Of a stretch of DNA of 64,000 bases, positions 33,362-41,439 are shown piece by piece. A model generated the notes under the pieces. That model had not been told where the DNA came from. It was given only the letters and a program-made list of their open reading frames with translations, and did no database searches. Position 1 is the stretch's first letter; every line of letters begins with the position of its first letter. Both the position numbers and the translations under genes were made by a program. Origin of the DNA: Apteryx mantelli (Eukaryota; Chordata; Aves; Apterygiformes; Apterygidae); NCBI RefSeq assembly GCF_036417845.1, contig NC_090020.1:33588425-33652424 (forward strand), read 5' to 3'.

Positions 33362-33367
33362 AAAGTG
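33362..33367. repeat. Target-site duplication, low-coordinate copy
   Basis: The six bases AAAGTG directly abut the provirus and are repeated exactly at 41,434-41,439. A 6-bp duplication is the size made by alpharetroviral and betaretroviral integrases. Confidence 0.95.
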
Positions 33368-33853
33368 TGTCGCGGTCCGCGGGAGTGACGGGAATGAATC
33401 ATACGCATTCACAAAATGCAGGTTCAATTCCATCTTTATTCAGCAATTTGCCTATTTTATAAGTACAAGTATTCGGCGCTCTGGCCCTTGATTTGTGGTT
33501 CATACAGATTATGTCACAGGTAGCCAATCATTGCACCGATCACGCACACAGCGGTCATGCCTCGTACCTTGCTACTTGTTTGGCAAAGCTGTCTAGCCCT
33601 TAACCTTGGTTCCCACTGGCTTCTGCTAGTTTATCTGTACTTTCTCAGGATGTATCATTCCCAGCTGCACCAGTGTCCTTGGTAAACTACTTCAAAGCAC
33701 ATAGCAGCAGCTACAGTCTGAGGCCTAAGGCTTCAGCAAATTTAGCTACTTATGCTAAGCAAGTTGTGCTAAGCAACTAATCCTAAACAGTGTAGTTCCA
33801 TACTCTATATTTCATATAGATTATTGTTCTGAAGTACCGCAAGGGCCCCAACA
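33368..33853 (-). repeat. 3' LTR of the provirus
   Basis: This LTR is 486 bp. In sense it starts TGTTGGGGCC and ends CGCGACA, so it has TG...CA ends. A TATA box lies at 33,455-33,461, an AATAAA at 33,435-33,440, and an intact inverted CCAAT box at 33,524-33,528. The cap site should be near 33,430, giving a long U3 (about 420 bp), a short R and a U5 of about 60 bp. It matches the other LTR at every position except 33,524. The last 15-16 codons of env lie inside its U3. Confidence 0.97.
33435..33440 (-). terminator. Proviral polyadenylation signal in the 3' LTR
   Basis: AATAAA in sense lies about 15 bases after the TATA box and just before the expected cap site. This compressed order, with the poly(A) signal at the U3/R junction and a very short R, is the alpharetroviral arrangement. 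The same hexamer in the 5' LTR is at 41,015-41,020. Confidence 0.8.
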
Positions 33854-35184
33854 CCTCCCCCTCTTCTTTCAAATAATAGATCAACCATTTTCTGTACCCG
33901 AGCTAGGATACATTGTAGTATACAAGGCCCACAAATCAATAGGAACATACCCACGATACCTATGGTAATCAGTTGTTTTAATCCTGCTGCCAACCAGGGC
34001 CCGATCCCCAGCCCCCGAAGCCACCCGTCAATGCCAAGGCCATTCTCCTGCTTCAGCTTATATAGCCCATTCTGAATGTTTCGTATACGCGCGTGGATTG
34101 ATTGTGAATGGTCGGTAAGATTGAGACAACACATCCCCTCAAACTCGTCACACCCATGTCCATGAGCTAAGAGCAAGAAATCTATAGCGGCCCTATTTTG
34201 TAACACAGCGTGGTTTATGCTCAGTGCATCCTGAGACATCTCATCTAGTACTCGTGATGTAATAGTTAACTCATTTTTGGTCCAACAAGCCAATTGCTCC
34301 GCCAATTTCATCGCCTTAAGCCCAGCGGCTCCCGGCAGTAGCGTAGCAGTCGCCAGCTGCCGGAAGCCTGACCAAAATACGGGATCGCCAATGTCCTTGC
34401 ACTCTAGCTCATGCACACTCCTTCTGCCCCGCCCGCGCTTCATCAAGACCAAGTTCTGCAGTTGGGTGAGATTGGGGTGGAACAGACTCAATCTCCCCAG
34501 GTAGCACGGGCCTCCACGCAGGATGCGTGGCACGCCGTTCCAGGCCCTATCCCCGCATATCAGAAATATACCAGGCGGCAGTGCTTTCGCTGTTATGTGG
34601 CTTGTTGCGTTGCAGTTCGTATACACCTGGCCATGCACGTCACCGCTGCTTAAGGCGGAATTCAAGGTTACCCATTTTGATGACCGCTCAGTGAGCATCC
34701 CCACAGGGGGAAGGAAGTTGACATACCCGCCCGTATCTTTTTCTGAGGCGCTGGCGGCCATACAGCCGAAGAGATCCAACTCCTCAGGGTCTGAATTTAG
34801 GGTTTTGTTTAAGGCCAGGATAATACGACACTGCCACCTTCCATTACGTTGCCACTTATTTAACTCTGGGGCCATTCTGGTCTTATCGACGGCCGTGAAA
34901 TTCAAGGTTGTCTTATTACCAACATATGCCTTGAATTCCTCTGCCCTCCAGGTGGGGACACCGATTAAACATGTCCTAAAAGGGTCACCCACCTTGCCCA
35001 TAGACAGACAGAACGATGTCTGGCCGGTCCTGTTTGCGATCGTAAGCCACACATTCTTCCTTGGAGTATGAAATGGGGGTAATACCGCACTCATGCTACT
35101 CAAACTAATTATGCTGCCTATAAGTGTGACTAGGACCGCTCTTCCACCAACCCCCCCAACACTCTTTTGTTCGTGCCCAGTCAT
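33805..35184 (-). CDS. env: Env polyprotein (SU-TM), alpharetrovirus-like
   Basis: Env is a 459-residue glycoprotein precursor that mediates receptor binding and fusion at the virion surface. The ATG at 35,182-35,184 is the first ATG after the pol stop; the frame is open further upstream but has no ATG. Residues 16-33 form a hydrophobic signal-peptide core. SU is short, about 220 residues, with potential N-glycosylation at 51, 90, 95, 126, 192 and 238. A furin-type site, RGRR, ends at residue 255. TM has an internal fusion loop flanked by Cys262 and Cys300, a heptad region, the immunosuppressive-type segment near 328-344, a CX6CC motif (Cys345, Cys352, Cys353) and a membrane anchor at about 404-427. 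The cytoplasmic tail crosses the polypurine tract and ends in U3. The Cys-flanked internal loop is the alpharetroviral pattern. No CXXC occurs in SU. The frame has no stop or frameshift. Receptor use cannot be told from sequence. Confidence 0.93.
   Translation of the reverse strand: MTGHEQKSVGGVGGRAVLVTLIGSIISLSSMSAVLPPFHTPRKNVWLTIANRTGQTSFCLSMGKVGDPFRTCLIGVPTWRAEEFKAYVGNKTTLNFTAVDKTRMAPELNKWQRNGRWQCRIILALNKTLNSDPEELDLFGCMAASASEKDTGGYVNFLPPVGMLTERSSKWVTLNSALSSGDVHGQVYTNCNATSHITAKALPPGIFLICGDRAWNGVPRILRGGPCYLGRLSLFHPNLTQLQNLVLMKRGRGRRSVHELECKDIGDPVFWSGFRQLATATLLPGAAGLKAMKLAEQLACWTKNELTITSRVLDEMSQDALSINHAVLQNRAAIDFLLLAHGHGCDEFEGMCCLNLTDHSQSIHARIRNIQNGLYKLKQENGLGIDGWLRGLGIGPWLAAGLKQLITIGIVGMFLLICGPCILQCILARVQKMVDLLFERRGGGVGALAVLQNNNLYEI
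33854..33870 (-). promoter_or_regulatory. Polypurine tract for plus-strand priming
   Basis: Immediately upstream of the 3' LTR the sense strand is purine-only for 17 bases (GAAAGAAGAGGGGGAGG). This is the standard RNase H-resistant primer for plus-strand synthesis. Here it is also coding, giving the Arg/Gly-rich part of the Env tail. Confidence 0.9.
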
Positions 35185-35281
35185 TGCAGCACGCTCACAA
35201 TCACAATCCCGTTCGTTCCGGGTGAGGCTGGTGCTTTGTTTTCGTCCTCTGTCAAGAGCTTCCAGTTCCTGCCGCTGGTCT

Positions 35282-37936
35282 TCAAGCGCAGGTAGTAGCT
35301 GACTCACGGGCTGTTTCCAGTGGGCAGTCGTCCGCAGGTCCAACGTTACTCTTCTTCAACCACGGTCGAACCCACTTCGCGGGTATCCACTCCGTACCAG
35401 TACCTGCAATGACACAAGCATACCCTCGGCCCCAAGTGAGTAATTCCACAGGCCCCTGCCATGAATGTGTTTGTGGTACCCATCGGGACACGAGCGTCTT
35501 AATAGGTCTCGTAATCTGTGCATGGCGTGCCCCTGGGCTGATCAACTCCCCTTGGTCTATTTCAATGAGGTTGCGCCAATTTAACACATAACAGCTTTTT
35601 GCTACGATGTCATGGACGGGGAGAGATACCTCCCCCTCCTTTTTCAAAATAGCAAAAAGGCGTTTTAAATCCTGATGACGGCGCTCCACTATGGCCTGGC
35701 CAGTGGAATTATAGGGGACCCCCGTGGAATGTGTAATGTCCCAAGCTCTCATAAACTCAGCGCACGCGGCGCTCGTATAGGCAGGTCCATTGTCGGTTTT
35801 TATCTGAGCCGGCTTCCCCAGCGCGGCAAAGGCTTGCAGCCAATGCAGGCGGCAGGCAGTAAAGCGTGTGGAGGTTGCGGCAGTGGCCCAGGTCATTTTA
35901 CTGAATGTATCGACTGATACATGGACAAAGCGCAGTCGCCCAAAGGCAGGGACTTCTGTGACATTGGTCTGCCATAACTGGCGAGGTTCTAACCCGCGTG
36001 GGTTTGTCCCTGTATCCTGCAGCGGGGGAATGTGTGCACAATCAGGGCACGCGGCCACTATGGCCCTGCTTTCTGCCCGGGATAAGTTGAACTCCTTTTG
36101 CAAAGATCTAGCTGACTGGTGAAAAAACGCATGAGATCGTTGTGCCAGCTGTAACCTAGTTTTTTCTTCACCGGCGGCTGAGACTTGGGCATCTATGCGC
36201 TGGTTGCCCTCCGCCAATATTCCCGGCAGCCCCGAATGACTACGGACGTGTGTGCACCAGAATGGCTGAACGCGAGAATTTAAATGGCCGCTTGCTTGTA
36301 TCAACAACGCCTGAATCTTGGGGTTAGCGGTCTGCCCAATAAGAGCAGAGTGTAGTCGTTGTAACACACCCGCCACATATAGTGAATCAACTATAAGATT
36401 AAGAGGTTCTTCTGCAAAGTCCTTCAACGCGAGTACAGCTGCCATGAGTTCTAAAATTTGCACGGAGTGCTCGGGGGCACCTTGCATGATCTTTCGAGCC
36501 CATTCTCCTCGTACATTCACGTATTCGTATCCGTACTTCTTTGTTTTGCCGCTAGCGTCCGTAAAGACGGACTTCGCGTTGTGGATGGGGCCATCTGCCA
36601 TTACCTTCCTTTCTTCAAGCATCAATTGCGTGTGCAGTAGTGGGTGCTTTGGATAATGATTGTCGAGGGGAACCCCACACGTCGCCAGGGCGAATGAAAT
36701 GCTCTGTTGGGTCCATTCGGATACGAGATCCAAAGAAACCAGGGGCAGAATGATGCGTGAGGGCTCCTTCCCTGATATGATGCGGACGCGCTGTCTTGTT
36801 TTTAGTAACAGTTCTCCCACAGCATCTTTCCTGGGCATAATCACTGTGCGTGGCTGGACTGGCGAAAACACCCACTCCAGGATCGTGAGCTGATTTGTCT
36901 CGTTTGTTTGACCAATTATGCCAACCACCTCCTGTTGTTTATTGTAGCACACTATGTCAATGGGTTTCATGGGGTCATAGCGATAGGCTTGTACATTTCC
37001 AAGCTTCCTCTCTATGTTAGCCATGACTTCCTGCACTGGAGGAGACAACGTTCTTGCTTCTCTGGGGTTCTTGCTATTCTTAAGTAAATTCACCAGCGGT
37101 TGAATTTCCTCATTGGTAATGCCGCAGTAAGTACGGATCCATTGAATGTCCCCAAGAAGTTTCTGTACATCGTTCACTGTTGCGATCTTCCGCGTGATCG
37201 AGGTTTTCATTGGGTAGACTCGGGTCTCGGTTATGACCATACCAAGATAGTTCCACGGTGCGTGTTGCTGGATCTTCTCAGGGGCGATGGTAAGACCCCA
37301 GGCCTGGAGTTGTTGACTCAATTCCCGTTGACTCTCTTCTAGCAGCGGGGTTTCTGTTGCGACTAATATGTCGTCCATGTAGTGGTATACTATAGCCTCG
37401 GGATGTCTCTGCCTCCAGGGTTCTAAGGCTCGGTCTACATACCATTGACATATCGTGGGGGAGTTTTTCATACCTTGGGGTAGAACGACCCACTGATAGC
37501 GTCTCGAAGGACCAGATCGATTTATCGTTGGCACTGAGAATGCAAAGCGTTTGGAGTCCTCCAGATGTAAGGGGATACTAAAGAAACAGTCTTTCAGATC
37601 AATTACTAGCAGACTCCATTCCCGCGGGAGCATGGTAGGTGATGGCAGTCCTGGTTGTAACGCTCCCATATCTTCCATTGTTGCGTTCACAGCTCGCAGA
37701 TCGTGTAGCAGTCTCCATTTTCCTGACCTTTTCTGTATGGTAAAGATAGGTGTGTTCCATGGGCTGGTTGAAGGTTGAATATGTCCCAATTGTAGCTGTT
37801 CTTCTACCAATTTGTTAAGTTCCCTTAGCTTCTCCTTTTGCAGCGGCCACTGCTCGACCCACACTGGTTCGTCAGTCTTCCATGTAATTTTCAGCGTGGG
37901 CGGAGAAGTGTCAGCAGCGGCCATTACTAAAAAGGG
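35282..37936 (-). CDS. pol: Pol: reverse transcriptase, RNase H and integrase
   Basis: Pol is entered by a -1 shift from pro at 37,930-37,936. It copies viral RNA to DNA and inserts it in the host genome. The frame stays open upstream to at least 37,957; residues below are counted from there. RT has the first catalytic Asp at 120 (VIDLKDCFF) and YMDD at 193-196. RNase H has Asp467, Glu503, Asp524 and Asp589. Integrase has the zinc-binding His609, His613, Cys637 and Cys640, then Asp722 and Glu758 with exactly 35 residues between them, and a C-terminal domain near 835-865. The first acidic residue of the integrase triad is replaced: residue 665 (codon AAT, 35,963-35,965) is Asn in the WQTxVT context where families have Asp. 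RT and integrase look betaretrovirus-like, with some alpha-like segments. Reverse transcription looks intact; integration by this protein is doubtful. Confidence 0.95.
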   Translation of the reverse strand, partial: PFLVMAAADTSPPTLKITWKTDEPVWVEQWPLQKEKLRELNKLVEEQLQLGHIQPSTSPWNTPIFTIQKRSGKWRLLHDLRAVNATMEDMGALQPGLPSPTMLPREWSLLVIDLKDCFFSIPLHLEDSKRFAFSVPTINRSGPSRRYQWVVLPQGMKNSPTICQWYVDRALEPWRQRHPEAIVYHYMDDILVATETPLLEESQRELSQQLQAWGLTIAPEKIQQHAPWNYLGMVITETRVYPMKTSITRKIATVNDVQKLLGDIQWIRTYCGITNEEIQPLVNLLKNSKNPREARTLSPPVQEVMANIERKLGNVQAYRYDPMKPIDIVCYNKQQEVVGIIGQTNETNQLTILEWVFSPVQPRTVIMPRKDAVGELLLKTRQRVRIISGKEPSRIILPLVSLDLVSEWTQQSISFALATCGVPLDNHYPKHPLLHTQLMLEERKVMADGPIHNAKSVFTDASGKTKKYGYEYVNVRGEWARKIMQGAPEHSVQILELMAAVLALKDFAEEPLNLIVDSLYVAGVLQRLHSALIGQTANPKIQALLIQASGHLNSRVQPFWCTHVRSHSGLPGILAEGNQRIDAQVSAAGEEKTRLQLAQRSHAFFHQSARSLQKEFNLSRAESRAIVAACPDCAHIPPLQDTGTNPRGLEPRQLWQTNVTEVPAFGRLRFVHVSVDTFSKMTWATAATSTRFTACRLHWLQAFAALGKPAQIKTDNGPAYTSAACAEFMRAWDITHSTGVPYNSTGQAIVERRHQDLKRLFAILKKEGEVSLPVHDIVAKSCYVLNWRNLIEIDQGELISPGARHAQITRPIKTLVSRWVPQTHSWQGPVELLTWGRGYACVIAGTGTEWIPAKWVRPWLKKSNVGPADDCPLETARESATTCA
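35403..35418 (-). promoter_or_regulatory. Candidate env splice acceptor
   Basis: In sense, TTGTGTCATTGCAG|G near the end of pol is a good acceptor, with the AG at 35,404-35,405. No ATG lies between it and the env ATG at 35,184, so an mRNA spliced here from the leader donor would start translation at env. Nearby weaker AGs cannot be excluded. Confidence 0.5.
37845..37922 (-). promoter_or_regulatory. Candidate pro-pol frameshift-stimulating stem
   Basis: Seven bases after the pro-pol slippery heptamer, GGCCGCTGCT (37,913-37,922) can pair with AGCAGTGGCC (37,845-37,854). This gives ten pairs with one G·U and encloses a 58-base loop. The spacing fits a frameshift stimulator, but the loop is long and the pairing has not been folded or compared between relatives. 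Confidence 0.4.
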
Positions 37937-38697
37937 CACGAGAGAACTAGGCCCCACTGAGACAGAAGGTCCCGGCCTAAGATCCAGAGAGGGGTATTCA
38001 TTACGTATGGTGTTACCACGCCCAAATGACCTTCTTCGTCGCAGATCTTCACGGGTCTCGCACTTCTCCAGGTGGGGGCTGAACCACCAATCCCCTGTAC
38101 TGCAGTGGTGCTATCCACTAGCGCCCAAGCGGCAGGCCAGGAGTCGCGAGGTACTATGGTGACGTCGGAACCGGTATCCATCATCATCTCGGCTTTTAGG
38201 TGATTCATTCCGTCTGGAGAGGTAATGATGACCCTTCGAATGGGTCTAGTCGAGGACACAGCAGTCGAGAACAAGGCCAGGGGCGTCCCCGTAGAGCCGA
38301 AACCTCCTCTTCTATCATCTCCGCTGGCCAGGGGGACCGCAGACTTGAAAGGGATCAATTGGGCAATTTTGCTTTTTGCTGGTATTGTAACTGGGGGACA
38401 GAAGACCTTCAGCATGATTTTTATAGGTCCACGGTAGTCGGCGTCGATGCATCCAGGGAGAACAAAAATTCCCTGTCTAGAGGCAGATGATCGTCCTATC
38501 AGTAAGGCCGACAGCCCCCCCCCCAAGGGGCCACAAACGTCTGAATTTACCAAGTGGACCTGCTCAGTGGTAATGCTTACTGATTCTGCCAGGGCCAGAT
38601 CGATTCCGGCGCTCCCTCTTGTGGCTGCATGGTGTTCGAAGAGGCAACCATGGGATATTTCTTCGCCGCGTCCCAGGCGCGGCTGTTCCAGTTTCCC
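37927..38697 (-). CDS. pro: Pro: dUTPase fused to aspartic protease
   Basis: This protein is expressed by a -1 shift from gag at 38,691-38,697. The N-terminal part is a trimeric-type dUTPase, which would lower dUTP during reverse transcription. The C-terminal part is the retropepsin that cleaves Gag and Pol. Residues are counted from the open frame at 38,736. The dUTPase motifs are GSAGIDL (41-47), GRSS (81-84), GCIDADYRG (95-103), IAQLIP (124-129) and the glycine-rich GGFGSTG (144-150), so all five are present. Protease has the active-site DTG at 187-189 (38,170-38,178) and the conserved ILGRDLL at 252-258. The frame ends at TAG (37,927-37,929), directly after the next slippery heptamer. A dUTPase in the pro frame is the betaretroviral arrangement; alpharetroviruses are not known to carry it. 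No disabling change is visible. Confidence 0.93.
   Translation of the reverse strand, partial: GKLEQPRLGRGEEISHGCLFEHHAATRGSAGIDLALAESVSITTEQVHLVNSDVCGPLGGGLSALLIGRSSASRQGIFVLPGCIDADYRGPIKIMLKVFCPPVTIPAKSKIAQLIPFKSAVPLASGDDRRGGFGSTGTPLALFSTAVSSTRPIRRVIITSPDGMNHLKAEMMMDTGSDVTIVPRDSWPAAWALVDSTTAVQGIGGSAPTWRSARPVKICDEEGHLGVVTPYVMNTPLWILGRDLLSQWGLVLSCPF
37930..37936 (-). promoter_or_regulatory. Pro-pol -1 frameshift slippery site
   Basis: The sense heptamer C CCT TTT sits in pro-frame register and is followed at once by the pro stop TAG. Pol is exactly one base back in frame. The X XXY YYZ rule is met. A stop directly after the slippery site also occurs at other retroviral and viral recoding sites. 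Confidence 0.75.
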
Positions 38698-40748
38698 GAC
38701 AACGGGGTGCCGCTTTTCTTGCATTTTGAACGGCACTCACTTGTCCGATGCCCAAACTTGTCACAACGCTGGCAGATACGGTTGTCTTTAGCCAGTCGTC
38801 TGAGGGGGCAATGTTTCTTCCAGTGCCCAGGTTGTCCGCAGATGTAGCAGTTCTCTGTTTTGCGGCCGCCCCCTCCTTGTGTAGGGCCCTGTTTCATAGC
38901 TACAGCTAATGCAGTAGCATGGATCTTCGCTTTTTGTTTTTCTAGCTCCATGGGTGCTCGGGAGCAAATTTCCACCATTTGGAGCAAAGTTGCTCCTGAA
39001 GGCAAGGTGGCGAGCAGTTTTGTGCAGGTTGGATTGGCGTTCTGCGTAGCGATCTCCTTAACCATGATTGTTTTCATATCCTGTGGCACGTTCGGGGCCG
39101 CATCAACGGCTTCCTTAAGTTTATCCACGAACTGCAGGAACGGTTGGTCTTCCGCCTGCCTTATTGACAGGTAAGGCGGATTAGCTTTCCCTATTTGGGG
39201 CAGTGCAGCGAATGCCTCTAAGGCAGCGTTTTTTGACTGCATCAGGACTCGGGGATGCAGTGCCGCCTGTCGAGCGGGGTCTCTAAAAGCTCCGTTGCCC
39301 ATCAGCATGTCCAAAGATGTCATACGTAACGGGTCATCTGCCGGTAAGTCCAAATTAGATAATTGGCATAGACCAAGCAGTTCCTGCCACTTATTCAGAA
39401 ACACCAGCAAAGAGGTGGGCCCCAAAATCAGTTCGGCAAGGGCGCGGATGTCGCTCGGCACCAGGTTCTGATATTTTACCAGTGCTCTCAGCTGCGCTTG
39501 CACTTGATGGTTATTTATCCCGTACTGCATTACCAGCTGTTGCAGCTTTGTTACCACTTGCCAATCCAGAGGCTCCCACCTCGTCTGTCCCTGACCCGTG
39601 GTCACCACCGGGGCTACTATAGGGAAAAACTGCATGTCCCCAACCAGTTCAGCATTCTGAATGATCCCGCGCCACCTTTTTGCCATGTCAAAGTCAGGGT
39701 CCCTAGGTGGTAGGGCTTTCTCCGGTGCTCTCGGTAAACGGTCCAAAATCATTCGATACTCTTTCTGTGTTAAAGGGGTTTTTTTCCAGGCTTGCAGATG
39801 TTGCTCCGCCTCCTCAAGGGACCACGTCCCTTTGAGTACGTTGGTAATCACCCAGTCTCTGGGGGCGATCTCTTGGTTCTCCTGGGATCCACCGGCAGGA
39901 TCCCCGGAGAACCGTTCCTCAACCGCCTTCAGGCCGTCCACAATGGCCTGATGCGCCTTCTTATACGCCTCCCTCACATGCGCCTTTTTCGACCCCCTAT
40001 CCAACCTCCTCATTTCCTCCAACAGTTCCTCCATTTTTTTTGAATATTCAGTCAGATCAACGCTTTTCTCCTCAGGTAAAGGCACAGTGGCCGGATCCAC
40101 TTCCATAGGGGGAGCGGACGGCTGCGGGGGGGCGGCAAAGGCATCAGCAACGTCCCCTTTCTTGTACGGTGGCAAGTCCTCATATCCTGTGCCAGTCCCC
40201 CAAGCCTCCCGCTCTAGCTTAGAGAGAGGTGCCGCACACGGCAGGGAGGGCTCATCTGTCACCGAGGGCCCCCCCGCGGATGGTGTATCAAAGACAGGCA
40301 CCGCACACTCCGCTCCGGGCACCGCGCACTCCGCTCCGGGCACCGCGCACTCCGCTCCGGGCACCGCGCACTCCGCTCCTTCCGTGCACTCACTCCCCGG
40401 CGAAAGTGCCGCCGCAGAGGGCTCCGCCTGCAGCGCCCTCCGTATGGCAGCAGTCGCCTGTGCCTCCCCGTGCAGCTGTTCGATCATGAGCCGCACGTCT
40501 CGATATATTTTGGCCAGACGCCTGGCCTCTTTTTCTCCGTTCTGGATGGATTCCCACAGTTCTTTTCCGACCTTCTTCCAGGTTACCGCGCTAAAGACCT
40601 GGCTGGACTCCCGTAACAAACCGCGCCGCCTTCCCCACAACAGCAAGTCCACCAGCGCCTGGCGCTCCACCTGGCGCTCTGTTTGTGCTGCCACTTGTAA
40701 CAATTTTTCTAACGTGGCCTTTTCTACTGCTGATACAGCGTTTCCCAT
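38577..40748 (-). CDS. gag: Gag polyprotein
   Basis: Gag is a 723-residue structural precursor that assembles particles at the membrane. The ATG at 40,746-40,748 is followed by GNAVS, an N-myristoylation signal. Matrix-like sequence covers roughly residues 1-110. A long Pro/Glu-rich linker follows, with four 7-residue repeats at 124-151 and a PSAP late-domain motif at 210-213; no canonical PPxY is seen. The capsid lies about 290-605. Its major homology region near 529-544 keeps the overall pattern (IRQ...PFLQFVDKL) but has Ala532 and Gln535 where Gly and Glu are usual. Nucleocapsid has two CX2CX4HX4C zinc knuckles at 634-647 (38,808-38,849) and 659-672 (38,733-38,774). The frame runs about 115 bases past the gag-pro slip site to its own stop. 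Two zinc knuckles and a long linker fit alpha- and betaretroviruses. No frameshift or premature stop was seen. Confidence 0.95.
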   Translation of the reverse strand: MGNAVSAVEKATLEKLLQVAAQTERQVERQALVDLLLWGRRRGLLRESSQVFSAVTWKKVGKELWESIQNGEKEARRLAKIYRDVRLMIEQLHGEAQATAAIRRALQAEPSAAALSPGSECTEGAECAVPGAECAVPGAECAVPGAECAVPVFDTPSAGGPSVTDEPSLPCAAPLSKLEREAWGTGTGYEDLPPYKKGDVADAFAAPPQPSAPPMEVDPATVPLPEEKSVDLTEYSKKMEELLEEMRRLDRGSKKAHVREAYKKAHQAIVDGLKAVEERFSGDPAGGSQENQEIAPRDWVITNVLKGTWSLEEAEQHLQAWKKTPLTQKEYRMILDRLPRAPEKALPPRDPDFDMAKRWRGIIQNAELVGDMQFFPIVAPVVTTGQGQTRWEPLDWQVVTKLQQLVMQYGINNHQVQAQLRALVKYQNLVPSDIRALAELILGPTSLLVFLNKWQELLGLCQLSNLDLPADDPLRMTSLDMLMGNGAFRDPARQAALHPRVLMQSKNAALEAFAALPQIGKANPPYLSIRQAEDQPFLQFVDKLKEAVDAAPNVPQDMKTIMVKEIATQNANPTCTKLLATLPSGATLLQMVEICSRAPMELEKQKAKIHATALAVAMKQGPTQGGGGRKTENCYICGQPGHWKKHCPLRRLAKDNRICQRCDKFGHRTSECRSKCKKSGTPLSGNWNSRAWDAAKKYPMVASSNTMQPQEGAPESIWPWQNQ
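38651..38683 (-). promoter_or_regulatory. Gag-pro frameshift pseudoknot (H-type)
   Basis: Seven bases after the slippery site, GCCGCG (38,678-38,683) pairs with CGCGGC (38,665-38,670), six G-C pairs in all. Within the 7-base loop, TGGGA (38,671-38,675) pairs with downstream TCCCA (38,651-38,655). The connecting segments are 2 and 9 bases. Stem lengths and spacing match the betaretroviral gag-pro pseudoknot class. This was found by hand pairing, not by energy folding. Confidence 0.75.
38691..38697 (-). promoter_or_regulatory. Gag-pro -1 frameshift slippery site
   Basis: The sense heptamer is G GGA AAC. It lies in exact gag register, with GGA as codon 685 and AAC as codon 686. Pro is the -1 frame at this point. 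GGGAAAC is a classic retroviral slippery sequence. Confidence 0.9.
40296..40379 (-). repeat. 21-bp tandem repeat inside gag, four copies
   Basis: Four near-identical 21-base units encode four copies of the heptapeptide GAECAVP (Gag residues 124-151). Copy number is a multiple of three bases, so it can vary without breaking the frame. Each unit carries one Cys, which is unusual in a Gag linker. Confidence 0.95.
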
Positions 40749-40776
40749 ACCGCCCGCCGCCTCACAAGGGCGCCTG

Positions 40777-40786
40777 ACTCACCGGT
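40777..40786 (-). promoter_or_regulatory. Proviral major splice donor
   Basis: In sense ACCG|GTGAGT, with the exon ending at 40,783, is a strong donor 35 bases before the gag ATG. A donor in the leader, not inside gag, means spliced env mRNA cannot borrow the gag start codon as alpharetroviruses do. Env must then use its own ATG. Confidence 0.75.
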
Positions 40787-40927
40787 CAGAAGAGTTGCGT
40801 AGCTACGACTTTTCTTTTCCCGTCTTCTTTCAGACGGCCAGGCTCGTTTTCCCCGGGCACGAGCCTCCCGGGCGGTATCCACTCCCGTTACTCGAACTCT
40901 TAGCAAAGCCAGCTTCTCCTCCGCAGT

Positions 40928-40945
40928 ATCACGTCGGGGTCGCCA
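40928..40945 (-). promoter_or_regulatory. Primer-binding site, tRNA-Trp type
   Basis: Two bases after the 5' LTR the sense strand reads TGGCGACCCCGACGTGAT. This is complementary to the 3' end of tRNA-Trp with one mismatch at the fourth base, judged against the known alpharetroviral primer site. tRNA-Trp priming is typical of alpharetroviruses, whereas betaretroviruses mostly use lysine tRNAs. Confidence 0.85.
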
Positions 40946-40947
40946 GA

Positions 40948-41433
40948 TGTCGCGGTCCGCGGGAGTGACGGGAATGAATCATACGCATTCACAAAATGCA
41001 GGTTCAATTCCATCTTTATTCAGCAATTTGCCTATTTTATAAGTACAAGTATTCGGCGCTCTGGCCCTTGATTTGTGGTTCATACAGATTATGTCACAGG
41101 TAGTCAATCATTGCACCGATCACGCACACAGCGGTCATGCCTCGTACCTTGCTACTTGTTTGGCAAAGCTGTCTAGCCCTTAACCTTGGTTCCCACTGGC
41201 TTCTGCTAGTTTATCTGTACTTTCTCAGGATGTATCATTCCCAGCTGCACCAGTGTCCTTGGTAAACTACTTCAAAGCACATAGCAGCAGCTACAGTCTG
41301 AGGCCTAAGGCTTCAGCAAATTTAGCTACTTATGCTAAGCAAGTTGTGCTAAGCAACTAATCCTAAACAGTGTAGTTCCATACTCTATATTTCATATAGA
41401 TTATTGTTCTGAAGTACCGCAAGGGCCCCAACA
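40948..41433 (-). repeat. 5' LTR of the provirus
   Basis: This is the promoter LTR, 486 bp. Its TATA box is at 41,035-41,041 and its AATAAA at 41,015-41,020. It is identical to the 3' LTR except at 41,104, where the plus strand has T in place of C. That changes the inverted CCAAT box, about 60 bases upstream of TATA, from ATTGG to ATTGA in sense. U5 contains a short upstream ORF that ends within the primer-binding site. Confidence 0.97.
41035..41041 (-). promoter_or_regulatory. TATA box of the proviral promoter
   Basis: In sense TATAAAA, followed by TAGG. It places the transcription start near 41,010 and drives the full-length and env mRNAs. The paired copy in the 3' LTR could start transcription outward toward lower coordinates, in the direction of the FAM240-like gene. 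Confidence 0.75.
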
Positions 41434-41439
41434 AAAGTG
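41434..41439. repeat. Target-site duplication, high-coordinate copy
   Basis: AAAGTG here is identical to 33,362-33,367. It fixes the exact provirus boundary. Confidence 0.95.

What the first reader, a model, noticed from the sequence alone, without database searches (positions are those of the whole stretch)
33368..41433. Young, full-length mosaic provirus: betaretroviral gag-dut/pro-pol with alpharetroviral env, primer site and LTR plan
Seen in the sequence: dUTPase fused to protease in the pro frame, two -1 frameshifts, a leader splice donor, a tRNA-Trp-like primer site, AATAAA at the U3/R junction, and an Env with a Cys-flanked internal fusion loop. Known: dUTPase in pro is betaretroviral, while tRNA-Trp priming and the internal loop are alpharetroviral. 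Inference: the lineage is either an intermediate between the two genera or a recombinant whose ends and env come from an alpha-like parent.
Basis: partly seen in the sequence, partly recalled or inferred. Interest (0 to 1): 0.85.

Follow-up and report, generated by a model that had tools for sequence, protein, structure and literature searches.

The report
Young mosaic kiwi endogenous retrovirus family
This is a recently inserted bird retrovirus, most likely in a kiwi genome, that joins the inner genes of one retrovirus group to an entry protein and primer site like those of the chicken leukosis viruses; related copies in the same genome show that such viruses mix by recombination.

Summary
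In detail: a minus-strand provirus at exactly 33368-41433 with 486-bp LTRs differing at one base, a 6-bp target duplication, four open frames, dUTPase-protease in its own frame, two in-frame -1 slippery sites, a tRNA-Trp primer site and an Env with a Cys-flanked internal fusion loop. The host is most likely a kiwi. RT groups with bird and turtle beta-like sequences, beside the mammalian betaretroviruses; capsid is roughly as far from RSV as from ERV-K. [quoted passage not shown] Frame plan, dUTPase and missing G-patch match chicken 'intermediate beta-like' ERVs described in 2005. Pieces from the same genome add more. Sixteen copies, this one included, have a full-length open env; 28 keep only its 3' part (the same 452-nt deletion in 4 of 4 checked), and the 15 sampled look younger. 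Related elements are clear recombinants, with exchanged gag, pol-3'/env and env-tail/LTR blocks. Recombination in this group is therefore shown; an alpharetroviral donor is neither shown nor excluded. Goose and stork gene models also pair dUTPase with this Env type, so the pairing is not unique. New variant of a known kind.

The parts
40948..41433 (-). 5' LTR (486 bp), TG...CA ends; TATA-like 41041-41036, AATAAA 41020-41015
33368..33853 (-). 3' LTR (486 bp), 485/486 identical to the 5' LTR
41434..41439 (.). target-site duplication copy, AAAGTG on the plus strand
33362..33367 (.). target-site duplication copy, AAAGTG on the plus strand
40928..40945 (-). primer binding site, tRNA-Trp, 17/18 (18/18 in 7 of 28 sister copies measured)
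40777..40783 (-). splice-donor-like GGTGAGT in the leader, upstream of gag
   Evidence: sequence only, not tested
38577..40748 (-). gag (723 aa): p24 N and C domains, zinc knuckles; 21-bp tandem repeat at 40297-40379
38691..38697 (-). gag/pro slippery heptamer GGGAAAC, in the gag frame
37927..38736 (-). pro frame: dUTPase then aspartic protease, no G-patch after it
37930..37936 (-). pro/pol slippery heptamer CCCTTTT directly before the pro stop
35282..37957 (-). pol: RT, thumb, RNase H, integrase
33805..35184 (-). env from first ATG (459 aa), avian gamma-type; the stop lies inside the 3' LTR
34682..35133 (-). stretch absent from the env-deleted sister copies (452 nt, 8-nt repeat at its ends)
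   Evidence: 4 of 4 junctions read, of 28 such copies

Best explanation
The window holds a young endogenous provirus of a beta-like (class II, 'intermediate beta-like') retrovirus lineage of birds, most likely in kiwi, with an avian gamma-type Env. From its parts, and by analogy with known families (inferred), it would copy itself as follows: tRNA-Trp primes reverse transcription; Gag, Gag-Pro and Gag-Pro-Pol are made by two successive -1 frameshifts; Env is made from a spliced mRNA and fuses through an internal, Cys-flanked loop. In this genome the family has spread both as full-length copies whose env variation bears the mark of purifying selection and as an env-deleted derivative that probably spreads inside the germline without its own Env (inferred). 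Co-resident lineages exchanged blocks, presumably by template switching, so gag, pol, env and LTR have partly separate histories.
For: Domains and frames. Placement: six-row clades in RT (99/97) and IN (99/99); the named members are Apteryx and, in IN, budgerigar, the others unlabelled. Pol best hit is an Apteryx protein at 100% over 99%. Env: ASLV TM is the best solved match; own clade 100/100. Copies: 85 env matches; 16 full-length and open at 96-100%, 28 with only the 3' part at 97-98%. LTR pairs: 13 of 15 fetched full-length copies measurable, 32 differences in 6317 sites; 15 of 15 fetched short copies, 6 in 7290, 12 of the 15 with none. Same deletion junction in 4 of 4 short copies read; from the env ATG the frame ends after 30 codons in the 3 where the ATG was found. 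Full-length env variants 48 synonymous to 50 non-synonymous against about 71% non-synonymous expected, p 3e-5 (relatedness of copies not corrected for). Recombinants: in one copy 415 of 417 informative sites left of window 35905 are like family E and 181 of 200 to the right like the window family, 0 of 2000 shuffles as good. Another has leader and gag 94-99% like the window but pol and most of env from family E.
Against: The most numerous copies lack a usable env, so present spread may need no Env. Their env remnant also shows few non-synonymous variants (14 to 3, p 7e-6, no significant difference from the full copies, Fisher p 0.09); 10 of 17 are shared with full copies and 5 to 2 are private, which is unexplained. 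No expression, particle or infection data. RSV was the only exogenous alpharetroviral reference in the IN and CA trees, and none was in the RT tree. AU tests on the TM tree were not significant (p 0.07 each). Host named by one protein match only.
Confidence: 0.87

Rival explanations
1. Intermediate, not recombinant: avian gamma-type Env and tRNA-Trp priming are ancestral to a whole sauropsid alpha-to-beta-like grade, and the genus Alpharetrovirus is one branch without dUTPase.
For: The CA tree rooted on RSV puts emu, goose and kiwi-type capsids in steps between RSV and the beta side (99/97, 95/87, 94/93), and the emu, goose and Gallus gene models there carry this Env type. dUTPase and this Env occur together in goose (P0112) and wood stork (P0114). 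Trp primer sites also in kiwi family B (18/18), E1 (17/18) and the pol recombinant (18/18).
Against: Recombination is shown outright among kiwi families. A swallow pol of the same class comes with an ordinary gamma-type Env (P0149; compare TgERV-F in PMC10536682, passages), so Env does move. The goose capsid row is very long (2.15) and the tree carries a long-branch warning.
Confidence: 0.35
2. Recombinant with an alpharetroviral parent that gave the ends and env.
For: tRNA-Trp site, avian gamma-type Env, no CXXC. AU test does not reject kiwi Env plus leukosis-virus Env as one clade (p 0.07). Ends and env tails are seen to be shared between kiwi families with different pol.
Against: The kiwi Env clade (100/100) is apart from the 10-row leukosis-virus clade (99/96) in the TM tree. 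None of the top 12 SU matches shown (of 158) is a leukosis virus.
Confidence: 0.2
3. Assembly artefact or contamination rather than an inherited provirus.
For: Nearly identical copies are easy to mis-assemble; one tandem array of three is present.
Against: Matching 6-bp duplications, different from copy to copy, at 10 of 13 full-length and 13 of 15 short copies measured, on many contigs; a near-identical Apteryx protein record.
Confidence: 0.02

Closest known systems
Chicken 'intermediate beta-like' (alpha-beta) ERVs, Jern et al. 2005 (PMC1224870, passages)
   Same: dUTPase before protease (in 21 of them), -1/-1 frameshifts, no G-patch, class II pol between alpha and beta
   Different: the passages seen give no env type or primer for the chicken group; its sequences were not compared here
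Betaretrovirus (MMTV, SRV/MPMV, ERV-K)
   Same: dUTPase-protease frame, two -1 shifts, RT and IN closest among solved structures
   Different: no G-patch, tRNA-Trp instead of tRNA-Lys (recalled), avian gamma-type Env, RT and IN outside the mammalian clade
Alpharetrovirus (ALV, RSV)
   Same: tRNA-Trp primer, avian gamma-type Env with internal fusion loop, capsid about as similar as to ERV-K
   Different: dUTPase present, pro in its own frame, splice donor before rather than inside gag (alpha plan recalled), IN far (147 bits for 7jn3, RSV by recall, against 225 for the best IN)
TgERV-F and related bird ERVs (PMC10536682 and PMC3758190, passages; the 2014 paper is not held)
   Same: class II bird gag-pol joined to an env of another history
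   Different: their Env is the ordinary gamma-type
Env-losing lineages: IAP (PMC10536682, table passage) and MEBrv 3 of dasyurid marsupials (PMC11334065, abstract)
   Same: a form without env multiplies in the genome
   Different: here full-length and env-deleted forms are both young in one genome; some of each have LTRs identical to the window's 3' LTR

Membership tests
Avian intermediate beta-like ERVs | dUTPase N-terminal to protease | tested here: met
   many of the chicken members lack it (PMC1224870)
Avian intermediate beta-like ERVs | gag, pro and pol in three frames, -1/-1 | tested here: met
Avian intermediate beta-like ERVs | no G-patch after protease | tested here: met
   protease match runs to residue 265 of a 269-aa frame; no G-patch Pfam hit
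Avian intermediate beta-like ERVs | Pol groups with the published chicken members | not tested
   those sequences were not at hand
Betaretrovirus (mammalian genus) | RT and IN inside the mammalian clade | tested here: not met
   apart from SRV in both trees and from MMTV in the IN tree
Betaretrovirus (mammalian genus) | beta-type or type-D gamma-type Env | tested here: not met
Betaretrovirus (mammalian genus) | G-patch at the protease end | tested here: not met
   some betaretroviruses lack it (PMC1224870)
Alpharetrovirus | no dUTPase; gag and pro in one frame | tested here: not met
Alpharetrovirus | tRNA-Trp primer site | tested here: met
   17/18 in the window, 18/18 in 7 of 28 sister copies measured; kiwi tRNA genes could not be searched
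Alpharetrovirus | pol groups with RSV | tested here: inconclusive
   IN scores higher with other class II references, but RSV was the only alpha row and the root of the IN tree; no alpha RT was available
Avian gamma-type Env | CX6CC, ISD, Cys-flanked internal fusion loop, no CXXC in SU | tested here: met
   marks from PMC3758190 and PMC9967133 (passages)
Avian gamma-type Env | SU-TM disulfide and the way of fusion | not testable with these tools
   needs protein work
Avian gamma-type Env | position with ALV Env in a TM tree | tested here: inconclusive
   separate clade 100/100, AU p 0.07

The most novel reading that the evidence does not exclude
The avian gamma-type Env and tRNA-Trp priming are old features of a broad sauropsid class II grade that runs from alpha- to beta-like. 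Within it, gag, pol, env and LTR blocks are shuffled between co-resident lineages, so 'Alpharetrovirus' is one surviving branch rather than the donor. Kiwi catches this nearly live: recombinants, full-length copies and an env-deleted offshoot, with 25 of 28 sampled LTR pairs of the family differing by 0 to 4 bases.
Probability: 0.35. Interest if true: 0.7.

Novelty: new variant of a known kind. Interest (0 to 1): 0.55.

Why it matters
[quoted passage not shown] A dUTPase-bearing beta-like lineage with this Env, most likely in a palaeognath bird, with gene models of the same pairing in goose and stork and an Env relative in a tortoise, makes the origin of the alpharetroviruses testable across bird genomes. 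My searches of the held library (listings) showed no paper on this pairing, but key papers of 2012 and 2014 are not held. The family also gives, in one genome, a side-by-side view of env-keeping and env-losing copies and of block exchange with dated LTRs.

Tried and rejected
Viral contigs (IMG/VR) gave no relative for the Env or the Pol alignment. Rfam and tRNA scans of the window were empty. Ten flank frames gave no Pfam family above its cut-off, and a bird CR1-tail pattern (recalled) had no match. Low flank CpG (0.16) made me consider a marsupial host until Pol matched Apteryx. I dropped the idea that the short copies code a working Env: no Met was found in the part of the open remnant read. 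I also dropped a claim of separate selection on that remnant, because 10 of 17 variants are shared with full copies. I first took PDB 5a9e for a betaretroviral Gag; its alignment shows it is RSV Gag, so capsid is reported as intermediate. Env hit P0088 and Pol hit P0124 list contigs of equal length (6650) and may be one element; if so their Env and IN positions conflict with kiwi's, but that rests on contig length alone and AU gave p 0.07, so it is not used.

Limits. Tree rows were hand-picked from the 120 listed hits per search: 38 of the Pol hits in the IN tree, 34 in the RT tree, 44 Env hits after P0067, P0083 and P0004 were dropped for want of the ISD motif, 39 Env hits plus three kiwi copies, where the C1 copy was dropped for the same reason. 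CA rows were those with a BLAST span over 110 residues (28). Short copies were sampled: 15 of 28 for LTRs, 12 of 28 for env variants, 4 of 28 for the junction. The LTR query scored 40 of 1920 first-look candidates, so LTRs were not counted. Two full-length copies without a whole 5' LTR at the expected place were left out of the divergence figures. Genome queries for tRNA-Trp genes, gag, integrase and the E-family LTR did not complete.
Full report
What is there. The window carries a complete provirus on the minus strand, 33368-41433. Its LTRs are 486 bp, differ at one base, begin TG and end CA, and are flanked by AAAGTG. It is richer in G+C (0.52) and CpG (0.75 of expected) than its flanks (0.38 and 0.16), as suits a recent arrival. 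Four frames are open. Pfam gives Gag_p24 N and C with zinc knuckles, dUTPase followed by protease, RT-RNase H-IN, and Avian_gp85 plus TLV_coat. The frames join by two -1 slippery sites that lie in the upstream frame. The primer site matches tRNA-Trp at 17 of 18 bases. The env stop lies inside the 3' LTR, so the last codons are U3 sequence.

Host. The Pol protein matches an Apteryx mantelli record at 100% over 99% of its length (integrase part 99.3%). The genome holding the window has 1.50 Gb in 408 contigs. Kiwi is therefore inferred, the species not settled. The listings of two searches for Apteryx with retrovirus terms showed no paper on kiwi retroviruses, and in the kiwi genome paper PMC4511969 the terms retrovir-, ERV and LTR do not occur in the main text.

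Where the genes belong. Best solved relatives by sequence. RT: chain 7sr6 (ERV-K by recall) at 448 bits against at most 192 for HIV RTs; 60 of 205 matches were shown and no RSV RT was among them. IN: 7usf (MMTV by recall) at 225 against 147 for 7jn3 (RSV by recall) and 117 for 1c0m, named RSV integrase. Protease: 3sqf (MPMV by recall) at 53, against 38 for 2rsp, named RSV protease, and 45 for 1bai (RSV-derived by recall); a tethered HIV-1-type dimer ranks first overall at 55 through two matches of 27 each. dUTPase: 2d4l (MPMV by recall) at 55. Capsid is undecided: RSV CA 2x8q 59, ERV-K CA 6ssj 56 bits; capsid with nucleocapsid is closest to RSV Gag 5a9e at 109 against 98 for 8c9m, while capsid alone in direct BLAST gives 8c9m 68 and RSV 56.

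Trees. RT (37 rows) and IN (41 rows) put kiwi in nearly the same six-row clade (99/97 and 99/99; named members Apteryx and, in IN, budgerigar; the rest unlabelled). In RT this lies in a 25-row clade whose named members are birds and turtles (99/96), beside SRV and other mammalian sequences. In IN it lies outside the 13-row clade with MMTV and SRV, which also holds a parrot and a sea-turtle row. The CA tree (31 rows) puts kiwi with stork, rhea, budgerigar, starling, pigeon and unlabelled rows (84/84 for the nine, 99/95 for the inner seven). Between these and RSV stand the goose and emu gene models, both of which carry this Env type; that tree carries a long-branch warning. The Env-TM trees (45 and 43 rows) put kiwi with Zonotrichia, Cuculus and two unlabelled sequences at 100/100, apart from the leukosis-virus clade. 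AU tests forcing kiwi with the leukosis viruses, or with the Env from the 6650-base contig, gave p 0.07 each, so they reject nothing.

Env type. It meets the published marks of the avian gamma-type: internal fusion peptide between two cysteines, CX6CC, ISD, no CXXC in SU. The 2013 review that named the type reported it only in alpharetroviruses and only in birds. The protein search listed 120 of 176 Env relatives; as I read the names, every named host is a bird except the tortoise Gopherus evgoodei. Gene models of goose (P0112) and wood stork (P0114) hold dUTPase and avian gp85 together, so the pairing is wider than kiwi.

Copies in the same genome. The Env query found 85 matches; 84 of 2906 first-look candidates were scored, so counts are lower bounds. 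Sixteen, the window's included, cover the whole frame at 96-100% without a stop. Twenty-eight cover only the last 298-300 codons at 97-98%. The rest are other partial copies or belong to older families at about 88, 80, 65 and 44%. Of the other 15 full-length copies, 13 gave both LTRs: 32 differences in 6317 sites, 10 of 13 with a matching 6-bp duplication. Of 15 short copies sampled, 15 gave both: 6 differences in 7290 sites, 12 with none; matching 6-bp duplications in 13, and in the other two a 5-bp one by my reading. With a bird rate of 1 to 2.2e-9 per site per year (recalled), the window copy dates to roughly half to one million years, with wide error from a single difference.

The env deletion. 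Four of four short copies read lack the same 452 nt, with an 8-nt repeat at the ends. The env ATG then leads to a stop after 30 codons in the three where it was found. They are thus most simply one lineage that lost env once and then multiplied, like IAP (PMC10536682, table passage) and MEBrv 3 (PMC11334065, abstract). How they spread is inferred: inside the germline, or with Env supplied by full copies. In the full copies env variants are 48 synonymous to 50 non-synonymous; those in two or more copies are 17 to 11, singletons 31 to 39 (counted without a tree). This fits selection on Env while the lineage spread and decay after insertion. The short copies' remnant shows 14 to 3, partly shared variation (10 of 17); I cannot fully explain it.

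Recombination. A copy of the 80% family has pol 94-95% like family E up to a point in integrase (window about 35905), then a pol end and env 84-85% like the window. Of 617 informative sites, 415 of 417 on the left are E-like and 181 of 200 on the right are like the window; no shuffle of 2000 did as well. A second copy of that family is 82% like the window over the pol stretch read, with no break, so the break is not uneven conservation. In family E, pol matches best a swallow-type group and most of env falls in another Env clade, yet the env tail (80-92% in nucleotides) and the LTR (88%) resemble the window's. One E copy (E1) also has leader and gag 94-99% like the window; the gag piece read of another (E2) has no nucleotide match. 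Exchange therefore happened at least between gag and pol, in integrase and in env-TM. Trp primer sites are also present in E1 (17/18), the integrase recombinant (18/18) and family B (18/18).

The anatomy was read correctly without tools. 'Intermediate or recombinant' is a false choice here: the backbone is of the described intermediate kind by its plan, and recombination is shown in related elements. That the ends and env came from an alpharetrovirus is not shown.

Noticed in passing
P0065, Gopherus evgoodei protein: A tortoise protein on a 370-Mb contig has the avian gamma-type Env marks (Cys-flanked loop, CX6CC), outside the bird-only range given in 2013.
   Followed up: partly
G000 contig C1:153842079-153863888: Three env-deleted proviruses in tandem share four identical LTRs, with one target duplication (GTGGTA) around the whole array.
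   Followed up: partly
window 40928-40945 and sister copies: The primer-site base facing tRNA base 73 is C in 20 of 28 and T in 7 of 28 measured copies; one copy differs in another base too. A tRNA variant or primer-copy repair could cause it.
   Followed up: partly
window 40297-40379: A 21-bp tandem repeat in gag (about 4 units); LTR spacing differences of 21 bp and its multiples between copies suggest its number varies.
   Followed up: partly
short copies, env remnant (L115-L126): 14 synonymous to 3 non-synonymous variants in a remnant with no start codon found in the part read; 10 of 17 shared with full copies, 5 to 2 private.
   Followed up: partly
G000 contig C3:10043904-10105981: Several old env copies with the same stops lie close together and look like a segmental duplication.
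   Followed up: no
P0074, Pogoniulus pusillus: A gene model joins an avian gp85 Env to a sialyltransferase; possibly a read-through model.
   Followed up: no
P0149, Hirundo rustica: Class II bird pol with TLV_coat but no avian gp85 in one gene model, like the TgERV-F kind.
   Followed up: partly
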